Shown: positions 1 through 8,510 of the stretch, one piece after another | How the letters are laid out: every line of letters begins with the position of its first letter | How positions within the stretch are numbered: position 1 is the first letter of the stretch | Origin: Geothrix oryzae | Lineage (GTDB): Bacteria > Acidobacteriota > Holophagae > Holophagales > Holophagaceae | Reading direction: 5' to 3' | Assembly (NCBI RefSeq): GCF_030295385.1 | Contig: NZ_AP027079.1 | Span: forward strand, 930,001 to 994,000 | DNA length: 64,000 nt | The notes under the pieces: generated by a model | Databases searched by the model: none | The model's input: the letters and a program-made list of their open reading frames with translations, nothing else | What the model was told of the DNA's origin: nothing | Program-made: the position numbers and the translations under genes

Positions 1-2
1 CG

Positions 3-1859
3 CGCCTTGCTAAGCGAGGTGATCTGTCTTGGGAAGAGTTCCTCAAGGGTTTGATTCATCGTCACTCTCCAAAGGATGAAGGAGCAGCGATCACACTGCA
101 ACTTCGCTTCCATGCTGAAGGAACCGAGAGACACCTTAAGATCCAGAGGGAGTGGAAGGCCAATTCAGGGAAGGTCAAGGAGACTCTGACCGTTTGGATG
201 GATGGGTCACTAGCCCCAGAAGTAGCGGAGGAATGGACCGAATTTGTAGAAAATCTCATCCCGTCTAGGATCGCTCACCTTTTCCTCTTTGACGGGGAGC
301 AGATTGCCGCACTTGCAGATCCGGATAAAAGCCGAGAGATCCTGCGAACTGGCATTTATGGGCTGCTTGGTGCGGATCTACTTGATCGCTTAGACAAGGA
401 CCTATTGGCGTTAGGGCGTCGATACCGCATGGATGCAGCCCCCCAAGAGACAGCCAAGGAGGTAGAGCGTCTTCAAGGTGACTGCCTTGAGGCAAAGCAG
501 GCGGTTTCTGACCTGGCGGCTGCAATAAAGAGTCTCCAAGAGGAAGTGGCCCGTCTGCATGAACAGCGAGAGGGCATCCAGTCTGAAATCCAATCTCAAG
601 GAGGGCACCTCCTGGAACGTCGTAACGGACTTGAACAGGAGGAACGGCACCTACAGACCCAGATCACAGAGATGGAAGATGAAATTCGCAGGTTGCAGAG
701 CGGGATTCTTCCCTTGGTTGGAGTCAGGGGCCTGCTTGAAGAGATTGGGCAGCAAGCAGCAAAGGAACAGATCCTTCGAGGAGGTCAGGAATGGCTAGAA
801 CGGCTCACCGATAGGGATAAAAACCTATTGAAGGATATGGAAAAGGCTCGAGTATCTACGGTCATATTGAAACGCCTGGAGTCATGGCTAGAGAAAGATC
901 GGGAGATCCTGGCTTCGGACCTCCGTGGTACCGAGGTGGAATATGATTTCTCACCCGAGGGATACGCCCAACTTCAACACCTCCTCCATGGTGGAATCCA
1001 AGAGACCTCCATTCAGTTCGAAGTCGTTCAAGTCCGACTGTCTGCTCATCGAGGTGCGCTCGAAAAGGTACAGAGAAGCCTGGCGCGCATACCCGATCCA
1101 GAGGCCGTTCGGCATCTGTTGGAAGCCCGAGCCCAAATCGAGCAAAAGATCGGGGCGCTGGCGTTCGAGATTCAGAGCAAGGAAAAGGGAAGGGCAGAGG
1201 CTGAAGGTCGGCTAACCCAGTTAGAGCGTCGGTTGGCCAAGGAGCACACAGACTTGGAGCTCAGTCGAATTGAAAGCGCCCTACAGCGCCGAAACATCGA
1301 ACACTTGGAGCGGGCGAAGGATACGGTTCGCGCTTTCAGGGATGCTCTGGTTGCACGCGACATTCACCGAATTGAGAAGGAAATTCTCAGGAGCGCCCAA
1401 ACCCTTTACTCCAAGAAGAAGCTGATTAGCCGGGTGAGTATTGACCCGGGCACGTTTCAGATCACCATCTTTGACTCGACCGGCGAAGCCTTCAGTGTCC
1501 ACCAGCTCTCGGCAGGTGAACGTCAGATTTTGGCAATCTCCATCCTTTGGGGCCTATGTGCCGCAAGCGGCAAATCGCTTCCTGTGATAATCGATACGCC
1601 ACTTGGACGCCTGGACCACAACCACCGGGAGAACCTAGTGGTTTCCTACTTCCACAAAGCAAGCCACCAGGTCGTGCTATTGTCCACCGAGGAAGAAATC
1701 ACCCCAGCCTTCTATCAGAGACTTTCTCCTTGGGTTGGCAGGGTCTGCTCTCTTATCTACAACGAAGAAACTCAATCAAGTCACTTTGAAGCAGGTAGGT
1801 TTTTCGGGGACTTCCAGCACCTGCCAATACATCCGTTGGTTGAGGAGGTCCTTCCATGA
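3..1859 (+). CDS. dndD: DNA phosphorothioation protein DndD (5' truncated by window edge)
   Basis: SMC/Rad50-like ATPase of the Dnd system, which puts sulfur into the DNA backbone together with DndA/IscS, DndC and DndE. The frame is open from base 3, so the start and the Walker A region lie outside the window; about 618 residues are visible. Seen: an ABC signature LSAGERQ near base 1510, a Walker B stretch VIIDTPLGRLD near 1580, and a long Glu/Gln/Arg-rich coiled coil between about bases 430 and 1350. The opening FLFDGEQI segment is typical of DndD. It overlaps dndE by four bases (ATGA), as in other dnd operons. GC is clearly lower than in the chromosome to the right. Family assignment is firm; ATPase integrity cannot be judged without the N-terminus. 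Confidence 0.9.
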   Translation, partial: RLAKRGDLSWEEFLKGLIHRHSPKDEGAAITLQLRFHAEGTERHLKIQREWKANSGKVKETLTVWMDGSLAPEVAEEWTEFVENLIPSRIAHLFLFDGEQIAALADPDKSREILRTGIYGLLGADLLDRLDKDLLALGRRYRMDAAPQETAKEVERLQGDCLEAKQAVSDLAAAIKSLQEEVARLHEQREGIQSEIQSQGGHLLERRNGLEQEERHLQTQITEMEDEIRRLQSGILPLVGVRGLLEEIGQQAAKEQILRGGQEWLERLTDRDKNLLKDMEKARVSTVILKRLESWLEKDREILASDLRGTEVEYDFSPEGYAQLQHLLHGGIQETSIQFEVVQVRLSAHRGALEKVQRSLARIPDPEAVRHLLEARAQIEQKIGALAFEIQSKEKGRAEAEGRLTQLERRLAKEHTDLELSRIESALQRRNIEHLERAKDTVRAFRDALVARDIHRIEKEILRSAQTLYSKKKLISRVSIDPGTFQITIFDSTGEAFSVHQLSAGERQILAISILWGLCAASGKSLPVIIDTPLGRLDHNHRENLVVSYFHKASHQVVLLSTEEEITPAFYQRLSPWVGRVCSLIYNEETQSSHFEAGRFFGDFQHLPIHPLVEEVLP

Positions 1860-2191
1860 ACCCGCCCATCCAAACCATTCGTTTGAGCAAGAAGGAGGTT
1901 GATCTCCTGAATGTCATCAAGCGTCGGACGAAAATCAACCAGTGGAATATCCTATGCAGAATGGCCTTTTGTCTTTCATGCCAGGATCCATCAGAACCCT
2001 CTGTTTCCGTATTGGGCACCATGGAATCAGGTGTGGAGCTTGATTGGCTAACGTTTAGTGGTTCAAGTTCTGAAATTTATTCAGCAATATCTCTACATCA
2101 CCAGAATCAAACCAAGTCGCAACTTTCCCCTTCGGAATATTTTAAGAAATTGTTATCGAGAGGAATAATCAAACTAAAAGAAGTATGCTAG
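1856..2191 (+). CDS. dndE: DNA sulfur modification protein DndE
   Basis: Small 111-residue protein of normal DndE length. Known DndE proteins bind nicked DNA and work in the DndCDE complex. The conserved core is visible at residues 27-42 (RRTKIN.WNILCRMAFCLS). Its ATG overlaps the dndD stop (ATGA), indicating translational coupling. It ends the plus-strand operon: the next gene, a DUF262 protein, faces it after 24 bases. No dndFGH restriction genes follow on this strand, so the restriction partner, if any, is either the DUF262 protein or something left of the window. Confidence 0.88.
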   Translation: MNPPIQTIRLSKKEVDLLNVIKRRTKINQWNILCRMAFCLSCQDPSEPSVSVLGTMESGVELDWLTFSGSSSEIYSAISLHHQNQTKSQLSPSEYFKKLLSRGIIKLKEVC

Positions 2192-2215
2192 TCACCGTAA
2201 ATGAATATTAGTAAT

Positions 2216-3973
2216 TTATATTTTCCAAATATCAACGGCATAAGTGGCAAACTTTTCAGCGCGTAATTTGATGGATTCGATCGTCCAGTCTAAAACAACG
2301 CCGCCACTTACATGAGCTTGATATATCTCATTTGTAATTGAAATTCCAGATCCCTTTTCTTCTGCCTCCTTTTTGGGTGCATAGCACGGGACCTTTTTTG
2401 CAAAAACATCGTTCTTAATGGATTTATTTAGTTCTTCTTCTAAAATCGTCATATTGCCAATAGAATATATCGCATTTTCAATTTCTTCATCCGAACCTGT
2501 GATAGACCACTTTGAGTGGTTGATGGGAGCAACATGTTCCAGATTCACATTTTCAGGGACAATGATCTTTCCTTTCCCTGATTTATGATCTTCAATTTTT
2601 GATAGTACATATTTTGCGATTGAATTCGAATCGAATTGATTGTCGCGAAATCTAGATCTGAAATTGATATCTGATACGTCCGCGTGATTAATTAATGCTA
2701 AAATGTTTTCATCACTGTCATTTTCGACTAGAGCTTTTCTGACTTGGGTGAAAATCTGTTCTGCTTCTCCGACCCTATAACCACCAATTGTTATGAATCG
2801 GAAAAGAAAATTATTCAATTTTCGCGCAAATATGGGTAAAAGTGTATCTTTTCCTTTTGACTTAGCGAGAATGATTAATGGATAAGGTAAACGGTAGCCA
2901 AGTGTATTCATTTCGGCCAACGCCTTATCCAATTCACTTTTTAATGTGAGGGCAGGATATTTGTTTGCAATGTTGGCATAAGTTGAAAAATAATCTGATG
3001 TATTTTTTAAATCGGTCGAGAACTTTGCCACTTTGGTTTCGTTATCATGCGTTTGCTTGATGGCTTTATATAATTCTCTGGTGGAAATAGGACCCGTATG
3101 AGCGGTCCAATAAAAACTAATGAAATCAACTTCGTTAAATCTTGTTTTTGCAATATTCTCAACCATAGATTCCCAAGATTGATATATTTTTTCAAACGAG
3201 CTCCCAGCTTTACTTAAAATGTAATTTTTAACCAGGTCTGTCAATCTAAGATCAAGACCCTTTGAGTTTAGTCCCTCGAATAGTAGATAGGCATCTTGAT
3301 CATCAGCAACAACAATTTCAATAAATAGTAATTTTGTTATGATAAATAATTCAAATTCAAATAATTTCTTAATTCCATCAGGATCTCGAAGAAAATTATT
3401 ATAAATACATTCGCAAAAGCGCTTTTTTGCTTTAAGAAATCTACGGTCTCCCGTATTTATTTTAAAATCGGTATAAAATTCTTCGGAATGATAAATGTAT
3501 TTATTGAAGTCATTAATATCTCGATCTGAGGGTTTAAAATAAAATTCCTCTATTCCTTCACTTGGATACAATGTACGCCGTGTAGATGAAAAGCCTCGCA
3601 TTGCGCAATTTTCATTGTCTGCGGTTTTGAAAATTTGTGCAAATATAGGATCTCCAGGAGTTTTTTGATACTTATTGAAAAGTGCATTTATGGATTTAAT
3701 TAAAATTGTGAGAGTTGCCAATCGCTGCTGTCCGTCAATAATGTCCCATTTCCCTGATTCGGATTCTGATTTGGGGTTATTTTTATGAATGAAAACTATT
3801 GGTCCGAGAAAATACTCAACATTATTTTCATATGATCTAAATATGTCATTCCATAGTTCGTCAATCTGATCGAGTGTCCAGGAATAACTTCTTTGATACT
3901 TCGGTACGGAGATACGTTTATTGATCCCATTAAAAATTGCTTCAAGATTAGATTTATTCGTCTGAAGGTCCAT
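2216..3973 (-). CDS. DUF262-DUF1524 protein, SspE/GmrSD-like modified-DNA restriction effector
   Basis: 585 residues. The N-terminal DUF262 (ParB/Srx-like fold) carries VPKYQRSYSW at 23-32 and the diagnostic DGQQR at 80-84. The C-terminal DUF1524 HNH-like domain has LEHVAP with its His near 480 and the later Asn near 507 (GNMTI). This architecture is that of GmrSD fusions and of SspE, where DUF262 senses phosphorothioate using nucleotide hydrolysis and DUF1524 nicks DNA. Next to dndDE it is a good candidate restriction arm; that link is inference. The gene is strikingly AT-rich compared with both neighbours, suggesting separate acquisition. Start is ATG at 3973 with GGGAG upstream. It could instead target glucosylated DNA as GmrSD does. 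Confidence 0.85.
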   Translation of the reverse strand: MDLQTNKSNLEAIFNGINKRISVPKYQRSYSWTLDQIDELWNDIFRSYENNVEYFLGPIVFIHKNNPKSESESGKWDIIDGQQRLATLTILIKSINALFNKYQKTPGDPIFAQIFKTADNENCAMRGFSSTRRTLYPSEGIEEFYFKPSDRDINDFNKYIYHSEEFYTDFKINTGDRRFLKAKKRFCECIYNNFLRDPDGIKKLFEFELFIITKLLFIEIVVADDQDAYLLFEGLNSKGLDLRLTDLVKNYILSKAGSSFEKIYQSWESMVENIAKTRFNEVDFISFYWTAHTGPISTRELYKAIKQTHDNETKVAKFSTDLKNTSDYFSTYANIANKYPALTLKSELDKALAEMNTLGYRLPYPLIILAKSKGKDTLLPIFARKLNNFLFRFITIGGYRVGEAEQIFTQVRKALVENDSDENILALINHADVSDINFRSRFRDNQFDSNSIAKYVLSKIEDHKSGKGKIIVPENVNLEHVAPINHSKWSITGSDEEIENAIYSIGNMTILEEELNKSIKNDVFAKKVPCYAPKKEAEEKGSGISITNEIYQAHVSGGVVLDWTIESIKLRAEKFATYAVDIWKI

Positions 3974-4285
3974 GTGGATTTTCTCCCTTGTTGTTTATGC
4001 TGTTATTGTGTGTGAAAGGCAACTTCGAATCAAGAGATCCTATAAAGCCAGTACGAGCAGTCTTCCATCCAATTCCTATTGTAATGACTCTTCAACTGAC
4101 TTCAGATGCCTTTCCTTGAGTCAAAGTTCATTGGGCGATCATCACACGATGCCGCCCTGGAGCCAGGGCAAGTAAGCATGAGCCATGACTGCGTGCGCCA
4201 CATGGAGCAAGGTCTGCCATTGCGTCAACTGGTGAATTGAAAACGAAATCGCAATATCCTGTTCTGGTTTTTCGGGGGGACGACA
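3974..4285. other. Intergenic region, no gene seen
   Basis: Divergent spacer of about 310 bases between the DUF262 gene (left) and the small 90-residue gene (right). It must hold both promoters, but I see no convincing -35/-10 pair. A short open frame at 3972-4175 has no ribosome binding site or protein-like composition and I do not call it. Confidence 0.5.
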
Positions 4286-4558
4286 ATGCCTTCTCTACCC
4301 AATCTCTACCCTGTTACTGATTACTACAAGGAGCATGTTCTTGATGGGATCACAGTAAGTAGAGGCGGGGGATGGTGGACTGCAATTCTGCTGATTGAGG
4401 ACCCAAAAAACAAGGCTCGTTTCTTGAACCTATACCGTTGGGAGTCAAGTGGCGATGAATGGAAGACACGTAAGACATTTACTATCCGAGACCAAGGCGG
4501 GCTGGACAAGATTGTCAAAGCACTTCAAGAGTTGCGTGAGAAGCTGCCACAAAATTAG
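4286..4558 (+). CDS. Hypothetical protein, 90 aa
   Basis: Not recognised. It starts at ATG 4286 with a G-rich ribosome binding site (six G at 4275-4280). It has no signal peptide or membrane segment; residues 29-60 are Trp/Arg-rich (GGGWWTAIL, FLNLYRWES, DEWKTRKTF) and the end is a helix rich in Leu/Lys/Glu. The composition looks like a small folded beta-alpha protein. It converges on the SNF2 helicase gene with a 3-base gap and sits in the middle of the island, so it may be an accessory factor or small antitoxin-like protein; this is only a guess. Confidence 0.6.
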   Translation: MPSLPNLYPVTDYYKEHVLDGITVSRGGGWWTAILLIEDPKNKARFLNLYRWESSGDEWKTRKTFTIRDQGGLDKIVKALQELREKLPQN

Positions 4559-4561
4559 TCG

Positions 4562-5914
4562 TCAAGATCTGAAGTGGAAGTCTGATGGAACTCCACCGAC
4601 CAGTGAGAGCAGTGTGGAGAATTTGGGTGAGTCAGTAGGTTTCATTTGACGGTCATCCACGACATAACTGAACAAGTCCTCCTTGGCTGACAGGAGGTCC
4701 TCTATGGCGTCTTCAACTGTGCCCTCGGCAATTAGACGTTTAATGAACACCGGCTTTCTCTGGCCGATTCTATGAACCCTATCGTCGGCTTGGTTCAATA
4801 TCTGAGGGTTCCACCAATTGTCTGTGTGATACACGTGGCTTGCTACAGTCCAGGTAAGCCCGACACCTGCAGCTCGAAGGCTGGCACACATGACTTTGCA
4901 CTTCGGATCATTCAGAAATTGTTCATGTGCATGCTCACGTTGTTCTCTTGTCATGCTTCCTGTGTAGAGCAATGCCCCGTATTTGACTAATCTAGATGCA
5001 ATATGAGGCAATGCTATATTTGCGAACGATGAGAAGATTACGGCTTTCTCCCCTCTCGCTGCGATCTCTTCCATTTCCTCTTCGATAAGATCGAATTTTG
5101 AGCTAGCTCCATCACTTGAGATGACTGCTATTCTCCGAAGCTCTTGGAGACCCTGCAAGATGCAGATGGTGGCAGATGCGACGCTTCGCGCCTCTTGAAG
5201 ACTGTTAAGCAGGTTCATTCTTGCCAATGCGTATTCGGAGCCTTGCTCTGGAGTAAGTGCAATGCCAATTCTGGCCACCACTTTTTCTGGTAATTGGAGA
5301 CCAACCTCGGATTTGGTCCGTCGCAACATCAACTGATCAGTTTGAAATAGTATTTTTTCTGCATCATTGAGGTCATTGGCAGTCAGGAATTCATTCGGCG
5401 CAAGGAATCGGAGGATGCTTGCAAGCTCCCGCGGGTGATTCTCAAGCGGGGTACCCGTGATGGCCCAGCGCCTCGGTGCGACCAGTTTCGAGAGCACCTT
5501 AGATCGTATTCCTTCCGGGGCTTTGATGCGTTGAGCCTCATCAATCACCAACACATCGATTCCAATGTCGAAGAATCCTTCTCCATGCCAGGTCGGGCGT
5601 TGTAAGTCGGAAGTGATCGTCTCAAGCGAACCGATTAGAACGGGGGCATGTCCCTCCAGCATTCCGAACCGATCTGATCCTTGGTAAATCACAGCCGGGA
5701 AAGTGCCCCACTTCGCAATTTCATTCTTCCAATTGATGCAAAGAGAGGAAGGGCAAACAATCAACACTCTTCGAATTGCCCCTTGCTGAAAGAGTTGCTC
5801 TAAGGCAATGACAGTTTGAACCGTCTTTCCTAAACCCATTTCATCGGCAAGGAGGATACACCTCCGAGTTACCAGGTTACGAACTCCCTCGGATTGGAAC
5901 GGGTATAGGCCCAC
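4562..5914 (-). CDS. SNF2-family DEAD/DEAH-like helicase/translocase
   Basis: 450 residues, close to a minimal two-lobed SNF2 engine. Seen: Q-motif-like YPFQSEGV at 4-11, Walker A DEMGLGKT at about 24-31, Walker B VIDEAQ near 123 (DEAQ instead of DEAH), motif III ITGTPLEN near 154, motif VI QADDRVHRIGQ near 384. Such proteins translocate on duplex DNA and remodel bound proteins. There are no extra N- or C-terminal targeting domains, so specificity would come from partners. Start is GTG at 5914, 11 bases after the stop of the metallo-beta-lactamase gene; the frame is open further upstream but without a better start. Last gene of the minus-strand train. Confidence 0.88.
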   Translation of the reverse strand: MGLYPFQSEGVRNLVTRRCILLADEMGLGKTVQTVIALEQLFQQGAIRRVLIVCPSSLCINWKNEIAKWGTFPAVIYQGSDRFGMLEGHAPVLIGSLETITSDLQRPTWHGEGFFDIGIDVLVIDEAQRIKAPEGIRSKVLSKLVAPRRWAITGTPLENHPRELASILRFLAPNEFLTANDLNDAEKILFQTDQLMLRRTKSEVGLQLPEKVVARIGIALTPEQGSEYALARMNLLNSLQEARSVASATICILQGLQELRRIAVISSDGASSKFDLIEEEMEEIAARGEKAVIFSSFANIALPHIASRLVKYGALLYTGSMTREQREHAHEQFLNDPKCKVMCASLRAAGVGLTWTVASHVYHTDNWWNPQILNQADDRVHRIGQRKPVFIKRLIAEGTVEDAIEDLLSAKEDLFSYVVDDRQMKPTDSPKFSTLLSLVGGVPSDFHFRS

Positions 5915-5925
5915 AGAGGGTCCCC

Positions 5926-6966
5926 CTAGCCCCAGGCAAGGGAGTGCAATTGTGGAACAATTGCAGATCGAATGCCAAGTTGGTTCGAAATTGCCTCAGC
6001 TAAGGCCTGGGCATTCCCTGAACGAGGGTCGGTCCATACAGTGGAGGCACCGGTAGCCTGGATGTATTCCATGGTCCCGTGAAAATCTGCGTGGTCCGTG
6101 AACGCAATGCAAGAATCACCATTATCGTACAAGATGACCGGGTCCTTGGGTCTGGACATGTAACCGGTTAGGTGAATCTTGCAAAATCTGTCTACCCAAG
6201 GGAGGTGTCTCCGCTCATTCAGGGTAACTAAGGCAAGAACCGGTGTTTTATGACGAAGCAGATCGATTGCCTCGCGACTAGCAGCGTTCAAAACTTCAGG
6301 GAGAGGGTATCCATGTTGCCGGTATGAGTGGATTAATGGGAACGCCTTTGGGGAGGCAATGATTGGGATCTTAATGAACTCCGCGACGAGATAGAGGGCC
6401 ATCTGTAAGCGCCCGTTGTGCCCAATCAGGCAGACAGATTTTCCCGAGTGAAAATTGGTACAAACTTGTTCAGATAGCTTTTCAATAACACGACCTTGAT
6501 CGTATTGCCTGACCCGCAGGGGGTCTCCATACGTTGAATCGACGATCAGCTCATCTACTTGGATGACATCCCCAACTGGCCAAAAGAAATCAGACGAATA
6601 CCCAAGCTTGTATCCATCGCTACACGTGACTTTGACCTGAACGCTTCCGAGCATGTGGTTGCTTGGGACTAGTTGCACCTGGTCGCCACTTACGTCAAAA
6701 ACTTCCGTTGGCCCAGCGGCAATGATATTTGAGCGATAAGGAAGATCAGCATTGTAAATGGCGAAAAGCAAATCCTTTGTTTCCGCTGACATTACAATGG
6801 TTTGGTTTGCCTTGCTGGTATCGAAGTCAGACATGTGGTCTGAATGAATGTGTGTCTGCACTCGTACTGGACGGTCACAGGAAAACCCGTCACAAGAAAT
6901 GTGATCGCCAAGAAGCAATCCACCACGATCTTTGAGTTGAATACGCCCCATGTATTGGCTCCACAT
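5926..6966 (-). CDS. Metallo-beta-lactamase fold nuclease, beta-CASP-like
   Basis: 346 residues. Metal-binding motif HIHSDH near residue 38, motif 3 His in NHMLGS near 103, motif 4 Asp in YSSDFFWP near 124, an Asp in IVDSTYGDP near 140, and a late TDHADF near 293 that matches beta-CASP motif C. The overall plan and the TDHADFHGTMEYI tail resemble the putative exonucleases found with ATP-dependent DNA ligases and DEXH helicases. A DNA or RNA nuclease role is likely from the family; the substrate is unknown. It lies between a ParB-like HTH protein (2-base gap) and a SNF2 helicase (11-base gap), which suggests that the helicase feeds DNA to it. Internal ATG at 6951 is an alternative start. Confidence 0.83.
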   Translation of the reverse strand: MWSQYMGRIQLKDRGGLLLGDHISCDGFSCDRPVRVQTHIHSDHMSDFDTSKANQTIVMSAETKDLLFAIYNADLPYRSNIIAAGPTEVFDVSGDQVQLVPSNHMLGSVQVKVTCSDGYKLGYSSDFFWPVGDVIQVDELIVDSTYGDPLRVRQYDQGRVIEKLSEQVCTNFHSGKSVCLIGHNGRLQMALYLVAEFIKIPIIASPKAFPLIHSYRQHGYPLPEVLNAASREAIDLLRHKTPVLALVTLNERRHLPWVDRFCKIHLTGYMSRPKDPVILYDNGDSCIAFTDHADFHGTMEYIQATGASTVWTDPRSGNAQALAEAISNQLGIRSAIVPQLHSLAWG

Positions 6967-6968
6967 TC

Positions 6969-7673
6969 CTAAACGGAAATCCTCTCAACAGATTCCGTCA
7001 GGGTCGCCTCAATGCTCTTCCCGTTTAAAGCCTGTCGCAGGGCCAGTGCATCCGCTTCTGAAAGAAGGATAGAGAACCGATCGCCGTTAATTCGTAGTGC
7101 TTTGGGAATGACAGTAGGGAATCGTTGTGCCAGTAATAATTGTAGTTTCCTAGAGAGAGCTTCGCCTCCAAGTGATTTCGAAATCTCTCGAGCACTTGTG
7201 CTCAGCAGCGAACCGAGGATTAGCTCACTACGCTCTATTCGAGTCCGGGACTTCAATGCCCGAAGGACGCATTCGTGAACTGATTCCGATGTTCGAACCC
7301 AAATTTGAACCACTTGTCTGGCTTCTTCCTTACTGAGGTCGTGTTCGATGGCTGAGGTAATCGCTTCACGAATAAGGTCAGAATTTCCAAATCGAAGCAA
7401 TTCAGCAGCCGTGGACATGCTGATGCTTCCGCGTCTGCTGCCCCACTCGACCGTTGAAGCAACGTCGGGTGGTAATGCGACCAGTCCAGCGATTTTTCGA
7501 AGGGTACTTGTCTCCTTGAAACCTAACGCCTCTGCAAGTATTTCGACACTTACTTGTTGTAAAGCTCTATGAAGATAACCTGCGGCCTTATAGGGAGTCA
7601 GCCGTCGTTCCTTTTTATGAACATTGACGCTTAGAACCAAATCCCGCCATTCGCCTTGTTGGAGTCCATACAT
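6969..7673 (-). CDS. ParB-like helix-turn-helix protein
   Basis: 234 residues, almost all helical. It begins 3 bases after the parB stop. Residues about 74-120 (GSISMSTAAELLRF... LSKEEARQVVQIW) match the pattern of the central HTH of ParB/KorB proteins, and there is a preceding ALGFKETSTLRKIAGL helix pair of the same type. It lacks the N-terminal CTP-binding ParB domain, so it may be a ParB partner that binds specific DNA or dimerises with the ParB upstream. The C-terminal third (IPKALRINGDRFSILLSEADALALRQAL) is not recognised. Function beyond DNA binding is inference. Confidence 0.65.
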   Translation of the reverse strand: MYGLQQGEWRDLVLSVNVHKKERRLTPYKAAGYLHRALQQVSVEILAEALGFKETSTLRKIAGLVALPPDVASTVEWGSRRGSISMSTAAELLRFGNSDLIREAITSAIEHDLSKEEARQVVQIWVRTSESVHECVLRALKSRTRIERSELILGSLLSTSAREISKSLGGEALSRKLQLLLAQRFPTVIPKALRINGDRFSILLSEADALALRQALNGKSIEATLTESVERISV

Positions 7674-7676
7674 TAC

Positions 7677-8510
7677 TTACTCCTCGAGGAATCCGCGTCG
7701 TGTCAAGCCATCCTCGATAAGCTGCACGGCGGCCTCGTCCTGGTTTTGTCCTGAGTCCTTTGCATAGGACTGCAAACCGTGGTGAAGCGACTCCTCCATG
7801 GTAACGATGACCTGCTTAAGAACAGGTTGCTTTCGGCCTCGCTCAATCTTTTCCTCAAGGCTTTCCGTAGGATCACTAGCGACAACTTCAACGAATTTTT
7901 TCCGTTGCACATTGCTCATGGGCTTCAATTCGGCCGCGAATTTTTCGGCAGCCTCAATGTCAACTGATCCGTCCTGATTTGTGGCGGCCTGCTGAGCTTG
8001 GAGCGCAATCTTCATGTCAAGTTGTGCATTATCGACTTTCTTCTTTAGCTCTGGCACTAGCTGATCGTACTTGACGTACTGGCTTACAACCTGTGGAGAG
8101 AGCCCAGTTGCTTCTGCAACCATTTTGATAGATCCATAACGCCTGAAAAGTTTTGTGCATGCATCGATTAGCTCTTTCTGGTTGTTGTCACGACGTACCA
8201 GATTCTCTGTGAGAGAAATTGCTACTTTTGTATCGTCATCGATTGAGTCGGAATCGTGTACGATTGCTCGGATGGTCTGGTATCCCAGAGCCTTGTGTGC
8301 CAAGAATCGCCTTTGACCCGCAAGAATTTCAAATTTTCCATTTGTTTGCGCAGCCACGATGATCGGTTGCAGAAGCCCTTGTGCTCTGATGCTTGCGGCC
8401 AATTCATCGATTCCTGAACTTAGGTCAACCCTGACCTGGGCTTTCCCGATCTCTAGAAGATCTAGAGGGATTTCCTGAACGTTGCCGATAGAAGAATGGG
8501 CTCTGGTCAT
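7677..8510 (-). CDS. ParB/RepB/Spo0J family protein
   Basis: 277 residues from ATG 8510, chosen because GGAGG lies 8 bases upstream; an upstream start at 8564 would lack this site. Seen: N-terminal ParB domain with IPLDLLEIGKAQVR, GLLQPIIV, the GQRRF box (variant of the GERR CTP-binding motif) and ENLVRRD; then a central HTH (VAEATGLSPQVVSQYVK). The C-terminus is charged and unlike chromosomal ParB. No parA gene is next to it, so chromosome segregation is unlikely. Such lone ParBs often act as transcription regulators or DNA clamps. Its ATG overlaps the stop of the gene upstream (ATGA) and it heads the lower-GC ParB / HTH / nuclease / helicase module. Confidence 0.87.
   Translation of the reverse strand: MTRAHSSIGNVQEIPLDLLEIGKAQVRVDLSSGIDELAASIRAQGLLQPIIVAAQTNGKFEILAGQRRFLAHKALGYQTIRAIVHDSDSIDDDTKVAISLTENLVRRDNNQKELIDACTKLFRRYGSIKMVAEATGLSPQVVSQYVKYDQLVPELKKKVDNAQLDMKIALQAQQAATNQDGSVDIEAAEKFAAELKPMSNVQRKKFVEVVASDPTESLEEKIERGRKQPVLKQVIVTMEESLHHGLQSYAKDSGQNQDEAAVQLIEDGLTRRGFLEE

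What the first reader, a model, noticed from the sequence alone, without database searches (positions are those of the whole stretch)
4562..8510. Four-gene module ParB / ParB-like HTH / beta-CASP-like nuclease / SNF2 helicase in a defence island
The genes are packed with gaps of 3, 2 and 11 bases, and all four show complete family motifs. ParB without ParA, a second HTH, an MBL nuclease and a minimal SNF2 motor form a DNA-loading, cutting and translocating set that matches no defence system I can name. The DUF262 and ParB domains belong to one fold superfamily, so both effectors might read DNA through the same kind of domain. Linked to phosphorothioation by position.
Basis: partly seen in the sequence, partly recalled or inferred. 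Interest (0 to 1): 0.85.

Follow-up and report, generated by a model that had tools for sequence, protein, structure and literature searches.

The report
Unnamed phosphorothioate-linked four-gene defence module
Four adjacent genes (a ParB-like DNA clamp, a second ParB-type DNA-binding protein, a metal-dependent nuclease and a SNF2 motor) form a conserved unit that recurs in about ten bacterial phyla and, wherever the contig is long enough to tell, sits beside genes that put sulfur into the DNA backbone, so it is very probably an undescribed restriction arm of that defence system.

Summary
In detail: ParB, HTH, MBL nuclease and SNF2 genes lie at 7677-8510, 6969-7673, 5926-6966 and 4562-5914 on the minus strand, with gaps of 3, 2 and 11 bases and intact catalytic motifs. 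The link to phosphorothioation (PT) is much stronger than position alone. A search with only the MBL protein found 30 other loci in about ten phyla. ParB-HTH-MBL is at all 30; SNF2 is at 27, absent from two loci and off a contig end in one. DndC or SspD is in the locus in 28 of 30; the other two are cut by a contig end. The partners differ: full Dnd (window plus 6 loci), Ssp (1 locus), or a reduced DndA-DndC-DUF262 operon without DndB/D/E (21 loci). In the reduced loci the four genes co-evolve as one block and DndC/DUF262 as another. PADLOC, NCBIfam and the papers searched name no such system; none of 30 genomes has the DndH-type model. Best reading: a DndFGH-like restriction module that swaps between PT modification systems, often paired with a DndI-like effector. 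A bolder reading, that in the reduced loci it also replaces DndD/DndE in modification, is not excluded. Activity is untested.

The parts
7677..8510 (-). ParB-family protein (277 aa): N-terminal CTPase-type ParB domain, HTH, and a C-terminal beta-alpha-alpha segment that looks like a ribbon-helix-helix; no ParA
   Evidence: Pfam ParB_N; PDB profile hits Noc/ParB E 1e-19; GQRR and ENLxR boxes conserved; AlphaFold model pLDDT 80.6 with helices 240-253 and 257-271; Foldseek Noc 7nfu E 1.8e-10
6969..7673 (-). Second ParB-type DNA-binding protein (234 aa) without the CTPase domain; C-terminal ~100 aa domain of unknown fold
   Evidence: Pfam HTH_ParB in 29/29 orthologues; AlphaFold pLDDT 95.0; residues ~1-130 match the Noc DNA-binding domain 6y93, TMt 0.80, E 0.006
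5926..6966 (-). Metallo-beta-lactamase/beta-CASP-type nuclease (346 aa), all metal ligands present
   Evidence: invariant H39 H41 D43 H44 H104 D126 H292; TIGR04122 below cut-off; profile hits FttA, CPSF73, SNM1A, Cas14
4562..5914 (-). Minimal SNF2 motor (450 aa) with intact helicase motifs
   Evidence: Pfam SNF2-rel_dom and Helicase_C; Walker A invariant in 29
4286..4558 (+). Small ORF (90 aa), accessory gene in a subset of Dnd-linked copies
   Evidence: 39-41% identical homologues adjacent to the module in L051 and L054 only
2216..3973 (-). DUF262 + DUF1524 (HNH) protein, DndI/SspE-like effector; a DndI-like protein is also in all 21 reduced loci
   Evidence: Pfam GmrSD_N and GmrSD_C over cut-off; PDB 9jfl (DndI) E 2.8e-8 and SspE 6jiv E 3.8e-5; DGQQR, EHxxP and PxYQR motifs
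1856..2191 (+). DndE
   Evidence: Pfam DndE 72 bits, cut-off 25
1..1859 (+). DndD (3' part; the gene starts before the window at G000:C1:929826). Upstream are dnd-associated methyltransferase, DndA, DndB and DndC
   Evidence: TIGR03185 454 bits, cut-off 246; upstream genes read from L022; TIGR04096 and TIGR03183 over cut-off

Best explanation
The four genes are the restriction (effector) arm of phosphorothioate-based defence systems, filling the place that DndFGH, SspFGH or PbeABCD fills elsewhere. Proposed action: ParB, as an NTP-dependent clamp, and its CTPase-less HTH partner load on DNA; the SNF2 motor moves the complex along the duplex; the MBL nuclease cuts or nicks DNA that lacks the expected PT marks. 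Where present, a separate DndI-like DUF262-HNH protein is a second PT-responsive effector. Shown here: the conserved gene set, the domains and catalytic residues, constant linkage to PT genes, and exchange between Dnd, Ssp and reduced modification partners. Inferred: assembly into one complex, clamp loading, translocation, PT discrimination and phage restriction.
For: (1) PT linkage: of 30 loci found with the MBL sequence alone, 28 have DndC or SspD in the locus; L026 and L050 are cut by a contig end, and L050 still has DndA. (2) The modification partner varies while the four genes stay: DndCDE/DndBCDE (window, L025, L027, L028, L046, L051, L054), SspABCD (L029, with DUF4007/SspB at 7.6e-81), DndA-DndC-DUF262 (21 loci). 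Swapping of this kind is described for SspFGH and SspE (PMC8092258). (3) In 15 reduced loci, distances correlate best within {SNF2, ParB, HTH, MBL} (r 0.67-0.83) and within {DndC, DUF262} (0.83), less between blocks (0.46-0.68); in L032 the two blocks are divergently transcribed, and L085 has DndA-DndC-DUF262 without the four genes. (4) Nuclease, motor and reader content parallels DndFGH, reported to have nickase and translocase activity, and dndI is co-transcribed with dndFGH (PMC11662687). (5) The dnd_assoc_3 (DndH-type) model is over cut-off in 0 of 30 genomes. (6) Active-site residues are invariant.
Against: No experiment. 21 of 30 loci lack DndD/DndE and SspB/SspC in the operon, so the module could be needed for modification itself. 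SNF2 is absent at L028 and L046. L028 and L051 also carry a PT-DNA HNH endonuclease, so another restriction enzyme is available there. Absence of DndH is only suggestive, because DndFGH is uncommon in general. ParB proteins may act only in regulation.
Confidence: 0.56

Rival explanations
1. Modification scaffold: in the reduced systems the SNF2 motor, ParB (RHH-like C-terminus) and HTH protein replace the DndD ATPase and the double-RHH DndE reader (or SspC/SspB), and the MBL enzyme provides the nick, so DndA + DndC + the four genes form a third kind of PT modification machine.
For: All 21 reduced loci lack DndB/D/E in the operon; DndD is over cut-off in only one of these genomes, at a separate dnd locus; 14 of the 21 also have no DUF4007/SspB gene. 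In the module tree the reduced loci form one clade, UFBoot 100. Their DndC lacks the last 71-125 residues of Dnd-type DndC and has one extra invariant Cys. SspB acts as an essential nickase in Ssp modification (PMC7188994), and each known PT system pairs a sulfur transferase with an ATPase and a DNA reader (PMC10853773). In L025 the module lies inside the operon between DndE and DndA.
Against: The module also occurs with complete DndCDE and SspABCD sets, where it would be redundant. L085 keeps DndA, the short DndC and DUF262 but has neither DndDE nor the module. DndC co-evolves more closely with DUF262 than with the four genes. The RHH assignment rests on a model and weak Pfam hits. Most genomes are draft MAGs.
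Confidence: 0.25
2. Repair or maintenance: the MBL is related to the ligase-associated DNA damage exonuclease and SNM1 families, so the module may process damage at PT sites (oxidation, breaks) and have no defence role.
For: TIGR04122 and SNM1A similarity.
Against: TIGR04122 is far below cut-off and no ligase is adjacent; linkage follows PT loci, which are sporadic and horizontally moved; SNF2 plus nuclease plus reader is a common restriction layout.
Confidence: 0.08
3. Partition or plasmid-backbone genes caught in a defence island (ParB as a segregation factor).
For: ParB and HTH are Noc/KorB/ParB-like.
Against: No ParA; one unrelated MBL match in 72,556 plasmids and none in 50,697 phage records; constant linkage to PT genes on chromosomal or MAG contigs of about ten phyla.
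Confidence: 0.02

Closest known systems
DndFGH (DptFGH) restriction module
   Same: Multi-gene unit coupled to DndBCDE; combines a nuclease, a DNA motor and DNA-binding parts; may be accompanied by DndI (DUF262-HNH) (PMC11662687, PMC10853773)
   Different: No shared proteins: DndH carries a HerA/FtsK ATPase and a REase, here SNF2 and MBL; no dnd_assoc_3 match over cut-off in 30 genomes
SspFGH
   Same: Module that pairs with a PT modification system and coexists with a DUF262-HNH effector (PMC8092258)
   Different: Different proteins (Walker A protein and FtsK-like C-terminus there); no Ssp match among PADLOC hits of the four proteins
SspE / DndI
   Same: The neighbouring DUF262-DUF1524 protein is of this kind
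   Different: That is a neighbour, not part of the four-gene unit; in the reduced loci the Tyr of the PT-sensing PxYQ motif is His in all but one
PbeABCD (CxC ABC-ATPase systems)
   Same: Extra module next to a Dnd modification operon
   Different: Anchored on an ABC ATPase; none of the four proteins matches a Pbe model
DISARM, Zorya type I, Dpd
   Same: Contain SNF2 proteins related to this motor (DrmD, ZorD, DpdE)
   Different: None of their other components is in the locus; their SNF2 proteins are larger
Ligase-associated DNA damage exonuclease (TIGR04122) and SNM1/beta-CASP nucleases
   Same: Same MBL fold and metal ligands
   Different: 61 bits against a cut-off of 325; no ligase neighbour

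Membership tests
DndFGH restriction module | DndH-type protein (NCBIfam TIGR03238 dnd_assoc_3) in the genome | tested here: not met
   0 of 30 genomes over cut-off, own complete genome included
DndFGH restriction module | Coupled to a Dnd modification operon | tested here: met
   window, L025, L027, L028, L046, L051, L054
SspFGH / PbeABCD | Match of the four proteins to the Ssp or Pbe models of PADLOC | tested here: not met
   MBL, HTH and ParB have no PADLOC match; the 25 best SNF2 hits shown are ZorD, DpdE, DrmD, HmaA and BrxH models
DISARM / Zorya / Dpd | Core partners (DrmA/DrmB; ZorA/ZorB; DpdA) beside the SNF2 | tested here: not met
   Genes around the module were read and none is such a partner
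ParABS partition | ParB with CTPase domain | tested here: met
   ParB_N 70 bits; NTP-binding boxes conserved
ParABS partition | ParA partner gene | tested here: not met
   No ParA among the ORFs around the module
TIGR04122 ligase-associated exonuclease | Score over the equivalog cut-off | tested here: not met
   61.4 bits against 325
DNA phosphorothioate-based defence (broad class) | Genetic linkage to a PT modification operon | tested here: met
   28 of 30 independent loci with DndC/SspD, the other two cut by contig ends; 4 of 4 HTH-positive genomes in an unbiased sample are DndC-positive
DNA phosphorothioate-based defence (broad class) | PT in DNA and PT-dependent phage restriction | not testable with these tools
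   needs LC-MS/MS and plaque assays
DndI/SspE effector (for the DUF262 neighbour) | N-terminal DUF262 with DGQQR plus C-terminal DUF1524 HNH | tested here: met
   Pfam GmrSD_N and GmrSD_C; DGQQR; 9jfl similarity

The most novel reading that the evidence does not exclude
In the 21 reduced loci, DndA + DndC + DUF262 + SNF2/ParB/HTH/MBL form a third kind of PT modification and restriction system in which a SNF2 motor and ParB-type clamps replace both DndD/DndE and SspB/SspC, with the MBL enzyme acting as nickase for sulfur insertion as well as effector.
Probability: 0.22. Interest if true: 0.88.

Novelty: new variant of a known kind. Interest (0 to 1): 0.76.

Why it matters
Most PT modification clusters have no identified restriction partner: only 806 of 3416 nuclease-bearing taxa with the modification genes have DndFGH (PMC10853773), and sspFGH and sspE each accompany about 7% of sspBCD clusters (PMC8092258). 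This module is a concrete, testable partner for some of these orphans. It would also bring ParB-type clamps, so far best known from chromosome segregation, into a translocating defence complex. The reduced loci, without DndD/E or SspB/C in the operon, question the view that an ABC-ATPase/DndE or SspBC core is always needed; a survey centred on DndD/E could not have seen them.

Tried and rejected
A single-sequence scan of genome contigs and a viral scan with the window MBL found nothing; an alignment-based scan was needed. A viral scan with the MBL alignment also found none. Plasmid-backbone origin rejected. Two MBL relatives in the first genome scan proved not to be usable module copies: G060 lies among unrelated non-PT genes; G229 is a broken 62%-identical copy at a contig start with no upstream DNA to judge. 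Obligate pairing of the short DndC with the module was tested and failed in one of the 22 DndC sequences of that clade (L085/G089). Ribbon-helix-helix at the ParB C-terminus: Pfam hits weak (RepB-RCR_reg, RHH_6), model topology fits, left as inference. A parS-like palindrome near the module: only short inverted repeats, nothing convincing. No paper found describing the gene set; bioRxiv and most subscription papers are not held.

Full report
Observation. ParB and SNF2 are over Pfam cut-offs. The second HTH is a ParB/Noc DNA-binding domain without the CTPase part: HTH_ParB in 29/29 orthologues, AlphaFold pLDDT 95, closest solved structure the Noc-DNA domain 6y93; its last ~100 residues have no convincing match. 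The MBL protein is a beta-CASP/SNM1-like nuclease by profile, with every metal ligand invariant across 32 sequences; the SNF2 motifs and the ParB NTP-binding boxes are conserved as well.

Surroundings. The window is part of a complete 3.27 Mb chromosome. Upstream of the window the operon continues with DndB, DndC and DndD, with divergent DndA and a dnd-associated methyltransferase. The order is therefore (methyltransferase, DndA)- DndB DndC DndD DndE + / DUF262 - / SNF2, MBL, HTH, ParB -. The region has 33-60% GC beside host DNA of about 66-73%, and none of 20 listed same-genus genomes has an MBL match, a DndC match or an HTH orthologue, so it was probably acquired horizontally.

Recurrence. 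A scan of 84,980 species genomes with an alignment of three MBL sequences, independent of PT genes, returned 30 loci from Acidobacteriota, Gemmatimonadota, Pseudomonadota, Poribacteria, Planctomycetota, Actinomycetota, Bacteroidota/Rhodothermota, Dadabacteria, Chloroflexota and Binatota (phyla from the record titles). ParB, HTH and MBL are at all 30. SNF2 is at 27: it is absent at L028 and L046, and L026 begins inside ParB. PT genes are beside the cassette in all loci except L026, which is truncated. Three partner types appear: (a) DndA-DndC-DUF262, or DndC-DUF262 without a local DndA, 21 loci; (b) DndC-DndD-DndE with or without DndB, 6 loci plus the window; (c) SspA-SspB-SspC-SspD, one locus (L029). 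L026 and L050 cannot be typed. In L025 the four genes sit inside the dnd operon between DndE and DndA.

Unbiased check. Of 396 genomes of the same phylum, 4 have a true HTH orthologue (above 200 bits; unrelated ParBs below 50), and all 4 are among the 12 with a DndC match, hypergeometric about 5e-7. In 399 genomes drawn from the phylum of L030's genome, only that genome itself has it. The module is rare, about 1% or less.

Evolution. In a tree of the concatenated module the type (a) loci form one clade (UFBoot 100) next to L025. Their DndC form a clade too, lack the last 71-125 residues of Dnd-type DndC, and keep five cysteines shared with Dnd-type DndC plus one more. DndD is over cut-off in only one type (a) genome, at a separate dnd locus; 7 of 21 have a DUF4007 (SspB-type) gene elsewhere. 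Among 15 type (a) loci, pairwise distances correlate most within {SNF2, ParB, HTH, MBL} (0.67-0.83) and within {DndC, DUF262} (0.83), less between blocks (0.46-0.68). In L032 the two blocks are divergent operons. In L085 the DndA-DndC-DUF262 block exists without the module, beside a GIY-YIG gene and a DndB-like gene. The four genes are thus a separable unit.

Mechanism. The content (motor, nuclease, two DNA readers), the exchange between modification partners and the frequent presence of a DndI-like DUF262-HNH protein (PDB 9jfl) match the role of DndFGH, whose operon also carries dndI and which has nickase and translocase activity (PMC11662687). I therefore favour a restriction arm. The alternative, that in type (a) the module supplies the ATPase and reader needed for sulfur insertion, follows from the missing DndD/E and SspB/C and from the three-part logic in PMC10853773; it is weakened by types (b) and (c), by L085 and by the co-evolution blocks. 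A double role is possible.

Known or new. PADLOC 2023 and NCBIfam 2026 have no model for the module proteins beyond generic SNF2, ParB and exonuclease matches. The surveys found (PMC10853773, PMC12839542, PMC12704722) do not mention an MBL nuclease in PT loci in the passages searched. I call it a new variant of a known kind: a new effector module of PT-based defence, with a reduced subtype of special interest. Limits: mostly draft MAGs, no experiment, literature search restricted to open papers, and a degenerate-pattern search that favours sequences sharing two MBL motifs.

Noticed in passing
L085 8834-12318 and 13484-15016 (G089:C1): DndA, short DndC and DUF262 with a GIY-YIG gene and a DndB-like gene but no DndD/E and no four-gene module; a similar DndB-like plus GIY-YIG-like pair lies next to the module in L040 (9700-11492).
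   Followed up: partly
type (a) DndC proteins, e.g. L049 3870-5243: DndC of the reduced systems is 71-125 residues shorter at the C-terminus and has an extra Cys in 22/22 that only 1/13 Dnd-type DndC share.
   Followed up: partly
type (a) DUF262 proteins: The Tyr of the PxYQ motif (PT-sensing Tyr25 in DndI) is His in all but one of the reduced-type proteins, while the window copy keeps Tyr.
   Followed up: partly
window 4286-4558: A 90-aa ORF of unknown family has homologues only beside the module in L051 and L054.
   Followed up: partly
L051 11633-12553; L028 2989-3945: PT-DNA-binding HNH endonucleases (NF045808; over cut-off in L051, below it in L028) share the locus with the module.
   Followed up: no
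L046 6144-8594: In Mycobacterium sp. MFM001 a large ABC-type ATPase gene stands where SNF2 would be, and ParB appears truncated.
   Followed up: no
window 2001-4000: The DUF262 gene has only 33-36% GC, against about 50% in the module and over 65% in the host, suggesting a separate acquisition.
   Followed up: no
L025-L054: Many record titles look like marine sponge metagenome bins (my recollection of bin naming); PT genes are reported as enriched in sponge metagenomes (PMC5099237).
   Followed up: no
L022 7267-10044 (G000:C1 919266-922043): A 925-aa VirD4/TraD/HerA-like ATPase lies near the dnd operon on the same island.
   Followed up: no
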